Of a stretch of 64,000 nt of DNA, positions 56,581 through 59,656 are shown one piece after another. The stretch comes from Arthrobacter sp. (GTDB lineage Bacteria; Actinomycetota; Actinomycetes; Actinomycetales; Micrococcaceae). Under the pieces are notes generated by a model that was not told where the DNA came from, made no database searches, and was given only the letters and a program-made list of their open reading frames with translations. The position numbers and the translations under genes were made by a program. Numbering within the stretch: position 1 is the stretch's first letter; each line of letters opens with the position of its first letter. The stretch covers positions 62,001 through 126,000 of the forward strand of contig JAHFUZ010000002.1 of assembly GCA_023264815.1 (NCBI GenBank). The letters run 5' to 3'.

Positions 56581-58593
56581 ATGACGAACCCCCTCCTCAG
56601 CACCGGCGCCCTGCCCTACGGGCTGCCGCCTTTTGCCCAGCTCGCACCCTCGGACTACGCAGAGGCCATCACCGCCGGCCTCGAGGAACATGTGGCGGAA
56701 GTCCAGGCAATCCTGGACAACCCGGCGGGTGCGACGTTCCAGAACACTGCCGTGGCCATGGAGAAGGCGGGCCAACTGCTCCAGCGGGCCACGGCGTCCT
56801 TCTTCACGCTGGTTTCCGCCGACGCCACTGAAGAAATCCGGGAACTGGAGACCGAACTTTCGCCGCGGCTCTCCGCCCACCAGGACGAGGTCTATCTCAA
56901 CCGTGCCCTCTTCGACCGGTTCGCGGCGATTGACACCTCCGCACTTGATCCGGAGTCCGTCCGGCTCGTGGAGGAGTACCTGAGGGAATTCCGCCAGTCC
57001 GGGATCCAGCTCGATGGGTCCGGGCAGGACCGGCTGAAAGGGATCAATGCGGAGCTGTCGAAACTCGGCACCGAGTATGGGCAGCGGGTCAAGGAGGGGA
57101 GAAAGTCGTCGGCCCTGCTTCTGGAGAACGCTGACGAGCTGGCCGGCCTGCCGGCGGACGATGTGGCCAGCGCCGCTGAGGCGGCCCGCGCCGCCGGCCA
57201 CGAGGGGAAATTCCTGCTCACCCTGATCCAGCCCAGCAACCAGCCCGCCATGGCCGCCCTCGAAAACCGGGACGTCCGCCGTCGGCTGTTTGAGGCCTCC
57301 ATTGGCCGGGGCAGCAACGGCGGCAGCTCCGATGTCCTGGAGCTGGTTCGATCGATGGCCGGACTGCGCGCTGAAAAGGCCGCCCTTCTGGGGTTCGCGA
57401 ACTATGCCGAACTCGTGGTGGACCGGCAGACGGCCCCCGACTTTGAAGCTGTCCAGTCCATGCTCAACAGGCTGGCGCCTGCGGCAGTGCGCAACGCTGA
57501 TGCCGAGGCCGCGGCGCTGGCCGGGATTGCCGGGCATCCGCTGGAGGCCTGGGATTGGGCGTTCTACGCAGCGAAGGTGCGCCGGGAGAAATACGCGGTG
57601 GACGAGCAGGCGCTCCGCCCCTACTTCGAACTGGACCGCGTTCTCCGGGACGGCGTCTTCTTCGCCGCTACGTCCCTCTTTGGCATCACGTTCCATGAAC
57701 GCAGCGACCTTGCCGGCTACCACCCCGAGGTGCGGGTCTGGGAGGTCCGGGACCAGGACGGGGCGGAGCGGGGACTGTTCCTGGGCGATTACTACGCCCG
57801 GGGGTCCAAGCGGGGCGGGGCCTGGATGAACTCGCTGCTGGAACAGTCAGCCCTGCTGGGGACCCGGCCCGTGGTGATCAACAACCTGAACATTTCCAAA
57901 CCGCCGGCCGGGGAGCCGACGCTTCTGACGCTGGACGAGCTGCGGACCACCTTCCACGAGTTCGGCCATGCCCTCCACGGGCTGTTCTCCAACGTGACCT
58001 ATCCCCGGTTTTCCGGCACGGCGGTCCCCCGGGACTTTGTGGAATATCCGTCGCAGGTTAACGAAATGTGGGTCCTCTGGCCCGAGGTGCTGGCCAACTA
58101 CGCCCGGCACCACATAACAGGTGAGCCGCTCCCCCAGGACGTGGTGGACAGGCTTCATGATTCCCGGCTCTGGGGCGAGGGCTTCGCCACCACCGAATAC
58201 CTGGGCGCCGCGCTGCTGGACCTGGCCTGGCATGTGCTGGACGAACCCGGAATCCCCGACGACGTACTGGCTTTTGAGGCAAAATCGTTGGCCGCGGCCG
58301 GGGTTGCACATGCCCTGATTCCGCCGCGCTACCGGACCGGATATTTCCAGCACGTCTTCGCCGGCGACGGCTATGCGGCGGGCTACTACTCCTACATCTG
58401 GAGTGAGGTCCTGGACGCTGAAACCGTTGACTGGTTCACCGAGAACGGCGGCCTGAACCGCGCCAACGGGGAAAAGTTCCGGCACGAGCTCCTGTCCCGC
58501 GGCAACAGCCGCGACCCGCTGGACTCGTTCCGTGCCCTTCGCGGACGTGACGCCAGACTCGAGCCCCTCCTCAAGCGCCGCGGTCTTGAATAA
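56581..58593 (+). CDS. M3 family metallopeptidase (oligopeptidase A / Dcp-like)
   Basis: TTFHEFGHALHGLFSNVTYPRFSGTAVPRDFVEYPSQ (HEXXH); ATG at 56581 follows AAAGG (ORF opens at GTG 56578). Confidence 0.95.
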   Translation: MTNPLLSTGALPYGLPPFAQLAPSDYAEAITAGLEEHVAEVQAILDNPAGATFQNTAVAMEKAGQLLQRATASFFTLVSADATEEIRELETELSPRLSAHQDEVYLNRALFDRFAAIDTSALDPESVRLVEEYLREFRQSGIQLDGSGQDRLKGINAELSKLGTEYGQRVKEGRKSSALLLENADELAGLPADDVASAAEAARAAGHEGKFLLTLIQPSNQPAMAALENRDVRRRLFEASIGRGSNGGSSDVLELVRSMAGLRAEKAALLGFANYAELVVDRQTAPDFEAVQSMLNRLAPAAVRNADAEAAALAGIAGHPLEAWDWAFYAAKVRREKYAVDEQALRPYFELDRVLRDGVFFAATSLFGITFHERSDLAGYHPEVRVWEVRDQDGAERGLFLGDYYARGSKRGGAWMNSLLEQSALLGTRPVVINNLNISKPPAGEPTLLTLDELRTTFHEFGHALHGLFSNVTYPRFSGTAVPRDFVEYPSQVNEMWVLWPEVLANYARHHITGEPLPQDVVDRLHDSRLWGEGFATTEYLGAALLDLAWHVLDEPGIPDDVLAFEAKSLAAAGVAHALIPPRYRTGYFQHVFAGDGYAAGYYSYIWSEVLDAETVDWFTENGGLNRANGEKFRHELLSRGNSRDPLDSFRALRGRDARLEPLLKRRGLE

Positions 58594-58599
58594 CCCCTT

Positions 58600-58661
58600 C
58601 ATCGATTGCTGAGAAGGCGTCGTTTTGGGGCCCCAAAAGGACGTTTACGGAGCAATCGATG
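58600..58661. repeat. 62-bp symmetric nested palindrome (REP/PU-like candidate)
   Basis: 31-nt arms CATCGATTGCTGAGAAGGCGTCGTTTTGGGG and, as reverse complement, CATCGATTGCTCCGTAAACGTCCTTTTGGGG; 25/31 identical, centred on GGGG|CCCC. Confidence 0.75.
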
Positions 58662-58668
58662 GGGAAGA

Positions 58669-58713
58669 ACGACGGCGGGTGGCCACCTTCGAAAAGGTAC
58701 CACCCGCCGTCGT
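58669..58713. terminator. Bidirectional terminator between the convergent M3 peptidase and pdxS
   Basis: ACGACGGCGGGTGG..ACCTT-CGAA-AAGGT..CCACCCGCCGTCGT long stem followed by TACTTCTTT. Confidence 0.8.
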
Positions 58714-58729
58714 ACTTCTTTAGGAGCCG

Positions 58730-59656
58730 TTACCAGCCGCGCTCGGCGAGGCGGTGCGGCTGCGGGATCTCGTCCACGTTGATGCCCACCATGGCTTCGC
58801 CCAGCCCGCGGGAGGCCTTGGCGATGACGTCCGGGTCGTCGAAGAAGGTGGTGGCCTTGACTACGGCTGCGGCACGCTGGGCCGGGTTGCCGGACTTGAA
58901 GATGCCGGAGCCCACGAACACGCCGTCGGCGCCGAGCTGCATCATCATGGCGGCGTCGGCCGGGGTGGCGATGCCGCCCGCGGTGAACAGCACCACGGGC
59001 AGCTTGCCGGCGGCGGCAACTTCCTTGACCAGTTCGTACGGGGCCTGCAGTTCCTTGGCCGCGACGTACAGCTCATCCTCGGGCAGGGCCGCGAGCTTGG
59101 CGATCTCGGCGCGGATCTGGCGCATGTGGCCGGTGGCGTTGGAAACGTCGCCGGTGCCGGCCTCACCCTTGGAGCGGATCATGGCCGCGCCCTCGTTGAT
59201 GCGGCGCAGCGCCTCACCGAGGTTGGTGGCGCCACAGACGAAGGGAACCTTGAAGTTCCACTTGTCAATGTGGTGGAGGTAGTCGGCCGGGGTGAGGACC
59301 TCGGACTCGTCGATGTAGTCCACGCCGAGGGACTGCAGAACCTGGGCCTCAACGAAGTGCCCGATCCGGGCCTTGGCCATGACGGGAACTGAGACGGCGT
59401 CAATGATCTTGTCGATCATGTCCGGGTCCGACATGCGTGACACGCCGCCCTGGGCACGGATATCGGCCGGAACGCGTTCCAGCGCCATCACTGCAACGGC
59501 ACCGGCATCTTCGGCGATGCGGGCCTGTTCGACGTTGACGACGTCCATGATGACGCCGCCTTTGAGCATCTCAGCCATGCCGCGCTTGACGCGGTTGCTG
59601 CCCGTGACGCTGTTCGCGGACGAACCGGCTTCGCTGCTTACATCAGGTGTAGACAC
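58730..59656 (-). CDS. pdxS: Pyridoxal 5'-phosphate synthase lyase subunit PdxS
   Basis: [57 protein letters not shown] start at 59656 (VSTPDVSS). Confidence 0.98.

What the first reader, a model, noticed from the sequence alone, without database searches (positions are those of the whole stretch)
58600..58661. 62-bp perfectly centred nested palindrome next to a separate terminator
Seen directly: arms CATCGATTGCT...TTTTGGGG and their reverse complement match at 25/31 positions. The outer 11 bp and inner 8 bp (TTTTGGGGCCCCAAAA) are exact, and a 12-nt half-conserved spacer lies in each arm. It starts 7 bp after the M3 peptidase stop. A conventional bidirectional terminator (58669-58713) follows, so termination does not obviously explain it. 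The architecture suggests a dispersed REP/PU-like element, a transposon-end relic or a large dyad operator. That reading is inference.
Basis: partly seen in the sequence, partly recalled or inferred. Interest (0 to 1): 0.62.

Follow-up and report, generated by a model that had tools for sequence, protein, structure and literature searches.

The report
Dispersed palindromes paired with Vsr-like nuclease
The 62-base palindrome is one of about 37 copies scattered just after the ends of genes in this soil bacterium (Arthrobacter/Pseudarthrobacter group), and copies of it also bracket a gene for a DNA-cutting enzyme of a kind not previously linked, as far as I could find, to such repeats; related bacteria carry many such matched enzyme-and-palindrome sets.

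Summary
The palindrome at 58600-58661 is real: 25/31 pairs, no spacer, and the only one of its size in the window. It is one of ~37 copies of a dispersed family (A; all but one exactly 31+31 bp) in this genome, detected in 150/150 genus genomes. Copies lie beside stop codons, never between divergent genes in this genome. No RAYT transposase exists here.

Family A palindromes instead bracket a ~313-aa gene (contig C13, beside purL): an N-terminal winged-helix-like part plus a C-terminal Vsr/EDxHD nuclease fold (best PDB match: homing endonuclease I-Bth0305I). In 79 named relatives, 59 such genes have long palindromes on both sides, against 1% of control windows. Palindrome arms co-vary with the nuclease (Mantel r=0.86). 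Other genera pair diverged or unrelated palindromes with other nucleases, also dispersed.

A relative (G057) carries a second nuclease unit (B) with ~25 B palindromes. This genome lacks that unit as a clean 1.15-kb absence and keeps only a few B copies and remnants. Orthologous A copies keep conserved columns (6.5% divergence) while variable columns diverge 31%.

So this works like REP-RAYT but with a non-homologous nuclease. Binding, cleavage and mobilisation are inferred, not shown.

The parts
58600..58661 (.). 62-bp zero-spacer palindrome, family A copy (consensus CATCGATTGCTCCGTAACnGCCGTTTTGAGGnCTCAAAACGGCnGTTACGGAGCAATCGATG)
58600..58615 (+). outer conserved block, left arm; carries the CTGAG variant instead of CTCCG
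   Evidence: constraint on these columns
58646..58661 (-). outer conserved block, right arm (consensus TACGGAGCAATCGATG)
58616..58621 (.). variable segment of the left arm; varies between copies, partly compensated in the other arm
58619..58642 (.). central core (GTCGTTTTGGGGCCCCAAAAGGAC here; family G-C-TTTTGAG..CTCAAAA-G-C), the part most widely shared with other palindrome families
58669..58713 (.). ordinary hairpin terminator (inverted repeat 58664-58718), conserved at this locus with or without the palindrome; not part of the element
56581..58593 (+).
58730..59578 (-). pdxS (PLP synthase subunit), convergent neighbour

Best explanation
The palindrome is a solitary, non-autonomous copy belonging to a palindrome-nuclease system. 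The complete unit is [62-bp palindrome - nuclease gene - 62-bp palindrome]. The nuclease has an N-terminal winged-helix-like region and a C-terminal Vsr-like EDxHD nuclease domain. SHOWN computationally: dispersal, stop-codon-proximal placement, the flanked nuclease, matching of nuclease type and palindrome type, presence/absence of a whole unit, and sequence constraint on copies at fixed sites. INFERRED: the nuclease binds its own palindrome through the outer arms, as a dsDNA dyad or an extruded/single-stranded hairpin, and nicks it or the target next to it. That occasionally disperses the palindrome, or the whole unit, to gene 3' ends where insertion is harmless. Copies are kept recognisable while the cognate nuclease persists and decay after it is lost, as family B did here.
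For: About 37 A copies in this genome and matches in 150/150 sampled genus genomes. Of 44 intergenic copies, 26 lie between convergent genes, 18 between co-directional genes, 0 between divergent genes (expected divergent 24%, p=2e-5). In co-directional settings 32/37 lie 1-23 nt from the upstream stop codon. Cognate gene: C13:37496-38428, flanked at 11 and 53 bp by A palindromes, same arrangement in four species. Family B in G057: purN-B-nuclease-B. De novo scan of named relatives: 59/79 have >=20/26-bp-arm palindromes on both sides against 1.0% of 780 control windows; left and right copies 83% alike; median centre 84 bp before the start and 41 bp after the end. Mantel r=0.863, 0/2000 permutations; 11 genomes carry two nucleases each with its own palindrome type. 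Other genera show the same architecture with different palindromes, and these are also dispersed. The 1,153-bp B unit of G057 is replaced by 29 bp in this genome, which lacks the B nuclease and keeps about 4 B-like copies plus remnants. Nuclease dN/dS about 0.1; E208, D241, H258, D267 invariant in 34 sequences. AF2 pLDDT 89; top PDB match I-Bth0305I, TM 0.75 of the target.
Against: No binding, cleavage or movement has been observed. No target-site duplication was seen at the sites compared. A copies are largely shared between this genome and G057 (about 16 of 17 G057 A loci have an own counterpart), so A movement is slow or stopped. Constraint at fixed sites is more than mobility alone predicts and may mean a host function. 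Genus g17 (G376, G222) has A-like palindromes but no nuclease at E<=1e-12. 20 of 79 nuclease loci, and some, lack clear palindromes on both sides. The PDB structural match has a weak E-value (0.017).
Confidence: 0.78

Rival explanations
1. The palindromes are fixed host binding sites (chromosome organisation, 3'-end insulation, or a self-mark) for a domesticated nuclease-fold protein, and no longer mobile.
For: Orthologous copies are kept for long: conserved columns diverge 6.5-7.4%, variable columns 31-39%, with nuclease-gene synonymous differences pS about 0.44 between the same two genomes. 150/150 genus genomes match. Nuclease dN/dS about 0.1.
Against: Presence/absence between species at M3-pdxS, with three different palindrome types at the same spot; reciprocal presence/absence of nuclease units at purN and purH; multiple unrelated pairs across genera.
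Confidence: 0.3
2. Bidirectional transcription terminator or mRNA 3'-end stabiliser acting as an RNA hairpin.
For: Stop-codon-proximal, enriched between convergent genes, very stable fold, covariation beyond shuffles.
Against: No U-tract follows; the conventional terminator is conserved at M3-pdxS with or without the palindrome. G-U and A-C mismatches on the transcribed strand of co-directional copies are equal (42 versus 43), so there is no sign of RNA-level wobble selection. Sequence-specific arms track the nuclease.
Confidence: 0.12
3. Classical REP/REPIN mobilised by a RAYT (HUH Y1 transposase).
For: Small dispersed extragenic palindromes near stop codons, partner gene flanked by copies: the same pattern as published REP-RAYT (PMC3116915, PMC3733652).
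Against: No Y1_Tnp in this genome at E<=10 while the control genomes ring; the flanked gene is a Vsr/EDxHD nuclease.
Confidence: 0.02
4. Chance palindrome, or a relic of one insertion sequence.
Against: About 37 copies; nearly all half-sites occur in inverted pairs, 62 half-site hits against 1 for the reversed-pattern control.
Confidence: 0.01

Closest known systems
REP / REPIN elements with RAYT (TnpA-REP) of Pseudomonas, E. coli and others (PMC3116915, PMC3733652, PMC8266576)
   Same: Short dispersed extragenic palindromes, close to stop codons (GTAG REPs often supply a TAG stop, PMC3733652; here several flanking-gene ends use the TAA inside the element), partner nuclease gene flanked by copies, partner and repeat types matched.
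   Different: Partner is a winged-helix-like + Vsr/EDxHD nuclease, not an HUH Y1 transposase; full 62-bp zero-spacer dyads; tens rather than hundreds of copies.
EDxHD homing endonucleases (I-Bth0305I) and Vsr-like DUF559 / REase_MTES_1575 domains
   Same: C-terminal domain fold (PDB 3r3p TM 0.75 of target; 3hrl 0.69) and weak Pfam matches PF18741, PF04480.
   Different: Not in an intron or intein; the gene is bracketed by palindromes that also occur dispersed.
AbiEi antitoxin family
   Same: Very weak N-terminal similarity to AbiEi_4 (E 0.05-0.36).
   Different: Below curated cut-offs; carries a nuclease domain; no AbiEii partner sought or noticed.
MITEs
   Same: Small non-autonomous palindromic repeats plus an autonomous unit with the same ends.
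   Different: No target duplication seen, no DDE transposase noticed beside them.

Membership tests
REP/REPIN-RAYT | Dispersed extragenic palindromic repeats | tested here: met
REP/REPIN-RAYT | RAYT (Y1_Tnp, HUH) gene in the genome | tested here: not met
   no match at E<=10 in this genome
REP/REPIN-RAYT | GTAG or CGTC tag at one foot of the stem | tested here: not met
   Family A ends CATCGATTG..CAATCGATG with no such foot tag; GTAG occurs inside the arm of family B only
REP/REPIN-RAYT | Partner gene flanked by the repeats | tested here: met
   Met in form, by a different enzyme:
EDxHD / Vsr-like nuclease (partner protein) | Vsr-like fold | tested here: met
   AF2 + Foldseek: 3r3p prob 1.00, TMt 0.75; 3hrl TMt 0.69; E-values weak
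EDxHD / Vsr-like nuclease (partner protein) | Conserved Glu-Asp-His-Asp catalytic set | tested here: inconclusive
   E208, D241, H258, D267 invariant in 34 sequences; not superposed on the solved active site
EDxHD / Vsr-like nuclease (partner protein) | DNA cleavage activity | not testable with these tools
   needs biochemistry
Intrinsic terminator | G+C hairpin followed by U-tract | tested here: not met
   no T-run follows the palindrome on either strand
MITE | Target-site duplication | tested here: not met
   none seen at compared filled/empty sites, though flanks are 10-15% diverged
Known Rfam RNA family | Match over gathering score | tested here: not met
   only sub-threshold miRNA matches

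The most novel reading that the evidence does not exclude
A second class of bacterial palindrome-plus-nuclease system, unrelated by descent to REP-RAYT: Vsr/EDxHD (homing-endonuclease-like) enzymes that recognise, maintain and spread ~62-bp palindromes at gene 3' ends, with many coexisting, independently specific nuclease-palindrome pairs across Micrococcales.
Probability: 0.6. Interest if true: 0.9.

Novelty: new variant of a known kind. Interest (0 to 1): 0.84.

Why it matters
REP-type repeats have been explained by one enzyme family, RAYT. A non-homologous nuclease paired with its own palindromes would show that this lifestyle evolved more than once. It would give a working hypothesis for a large set of actinobacterial genes listed as DUF559 or hypothetical, and a natural series of matched nuclease-site pairs for studying how DNA specificity evolves. 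It also makes a long-standing question testable: whether dispersed palindromes are selfish or are kept for the host, because copies with and without their cognate nuclease can be compared between close relatives.

Tried and rejected
RAYT search: none. PF04480 (DUF559) as a proxy for the partner: found 4 genes, none obviously linked, and missed the true partner, whose DUF559 match is below cut-off. RNA-function tests: Rfam nothing; G-U versus A-C mismatch test gave no RNA signal. Single half-sites as an uptake-like signal: rejected, half-sites occur almost only in inverted pairs. Plasmid and phage carriage of family A: no match in those collections. Target-site duplication: looked for at M3-pdxS, at five B sites and at purN/purH, none seen. 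Literature: no paper found linking DUF559/Vsr nucleases to dispersed palindromes; only open-access papers are held, so absence is weak evidence.

Full report
OBSERVATION. The 62-bp palindrome is exactly as described: arms 58600-58630 / 58631-58661, 25 of 31 pairs, no spacer, 6 nt after the M3-peptidase stop codon, followed by an ordinary hairpin terminator and convergent pdxS. It is the only palindrome of this size and quality in 64 kb.

A DISPERSED FAMILY. BLAST and a covariance model find about 37 clear copies in the 4.18-Mb genome, all but one exactly 31+31 bp (one carries a single-base deletion, one further copy is truncated). Fixed blocks are ATCGATTGCTCC and G-C--TT-TGA with their mirror images; positions 14-19 and 21 vary but largely stay complementary. 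Half-sites occur almost only as inverted pairs. The family is found in 150/150 sampled genus genomes. In the rest of the order it is patchy, with the same length and centre but different outer arms.

PLACEMENT. With a codon-usage gene caller, 44 copies in this genome fall 26 convergent, 18 co-directional, 0 divergent. For the 39 best copies the divergent expectation is 24%, p=2e-5. One copy in other genus members is called divergent, and two family-B copies in G057. In co-directional settings 32/37 copies lie 1-23 nt from the upstream stop while the distance to the downstream start is broad; at several gene ends the stop codon is the TAA inside the element.

NOT AN RNA ELEMENT, AS FAR AS TESTED. 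In co-directional copies, G-U and A-C mismatches on the transcribed strand are equal (42 and 43), so no RNA-level wobble preference is visible. At M3-pdxS the terminator is present in all species compared, whereas the palindrome is type A in four, type B in two, type C in one and absent in six. Covariation therefore points to pairing or symmetry at DNA level.

CONSTRAINT AT FIXED SITES. For 14 orthologous copies shared with G057, columns conserved among copies differ at 6.5% and variable columns at 31%; for 26 further pairs, 7.4% and 39%. Synonymous differences in the nuclease gene of the same two genomes are 44%. So individual copies stay recognisable for long periods.

THE PARTNER GENE. Two A copies bracket a ~313-aa gene at C13:37496-38428, next to purL, in this genome and three other species. 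In G057 a second palindrome family B (CAACTAGGTAGCGCTAACTGTCGTTTTGAG.., about 25 copies) brackets a homologous gene, 46% identical to A, between purN and an MFS gene. In a distant genus (g19) the homologue lies beside two copies of that genus's palindrome. The protein has an N-terminal winged-helix-like region (weak AbiEi_4 similarity) and a C-terminal domain with weak PF18741/PF04480 matches. PF18741 (REase_MTES_1575) is described as a novel Vsr-type nuclease in PMC3710099. AlphaFold2 gives pLDDT 89; the best solved match is the catalytic domain of homing endonuclease I-Bth0305I (TM 0.75 of the target, probability 1.00, but E 0.017), with the Neisseria Vsr-like 3hrl also found. E208, D241, H258 and D267 are invariant in 34 sequences, consistent with an EDxHD site. 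dN/dS is about 0.1.

GENERALITY. An alignment of the partner retrieved 80 named loci (Arthrobacter, Pseudarthrobacter, Sinomonas, Paenarthrobacter, Specibacter and others). A sequence-blind inverted-repeat scan found long palindromes on both sides in 59/79 against 1.0% of 780 control windows, left and right copies matching each other, at regular distances. Palindrome arms co-vary with the nuclease (Mantel r=0.863, 0/2000 permutations), and in 11 genomes with two nucleases each keeps its own palindrome type. In other genera unrelated palindromes flank the homologues, and several of these are themselves dispersed, roughly 10-25 copies per genome (each copy is listed on both strands).

GAIN AND LOSS. 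At purN-MFS, G057 has 1,153 bp (palindrome-nuclease-palindrome) where this genome has 29 bp. Reciprocally, this genome has a different nuclease between MFS and purH where G057 has none, only a degenerate palindrome-like stretch. This genome has no B nuclease and retains only about four B-like copies. At three of the five comparable former B sites only terminal B fragments remain (L241, L244, L245). This is what is expected if copies are maintained only while the cognate nuclease is present, but it rests on one genome pair.

INTERPRETATION. The system works like REP-RAYT: solitary palindromes plus a palindrome-flanked, type-matched nuclease. It is not a member, because the RAYT/HUH enzyme is absent and the partner has another fold. 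Mobilisation by the nuclease is the favoured but unproven step; slow turnover and site constraint leave room for a domesticated host role. Exceptions: g17 genomes have palindromes without a detected nuclease, and some nuclease loci lack clear flanking palindromes. No target duplication was seen. Novelty rests on an open-access literature search that found nothing. The host is inferred to belong to the Arthrobacter/Pseudarthrobacter group from the names of the nearest loci.

Noticed in passing
window 58664-58718; also L032, L035, L038, L157, L161, L203, L209, L225: The ordinary terminators share an ACGACGGCGG..CCGCCGTCGT stem that recurs at many gene ends and is conserved at M3-pdxS in all species compared.
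   Followed up: partly
L089, L090, L093-L096, L098, L101, L105 (between the M3-peptidase gene and pdxS): A conserved hairpin-like block (CCGGCAGCGYGCGTAAAAGGGSCCCCGCGCC...GGGGAATAGCGCGC) lies between the ACGACG terminator and the pdxS end in many relatives but not in this genome.
   Followed up: no
G000:C41:27481-28001: A second pdxS-like copy, 93% identical to the window's over 520 bp.
   Followed up: no
L362 (own C54, MFS-purH) versus L381 (G057): An own nuclease unit with degenerate flanking repeats (TCTTAGTTGC-TG..TTGCGGGGCC) is absent from G057, which keeps one degenerate repeat: possible recombination between the flanking repeats.
   Followed up: partly
L190-L192 (G376, genus g17): Highly uniform 62-bp palindromes (CGCCAAGTGGCTCCATTTCGCTGTTTTGAG..) in a genome with no detected partner nuclease: an orphan family or a more diverged partner.
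   Followed up: partly
L382 (MT837503.1, 'Bacteriophage sp.' contig): A nuclease homologue with a perfect palindrome 85 bp downstream on a 6.7-kb contig labelled phage; possibly bacterial DNA.
   Followed up: partly
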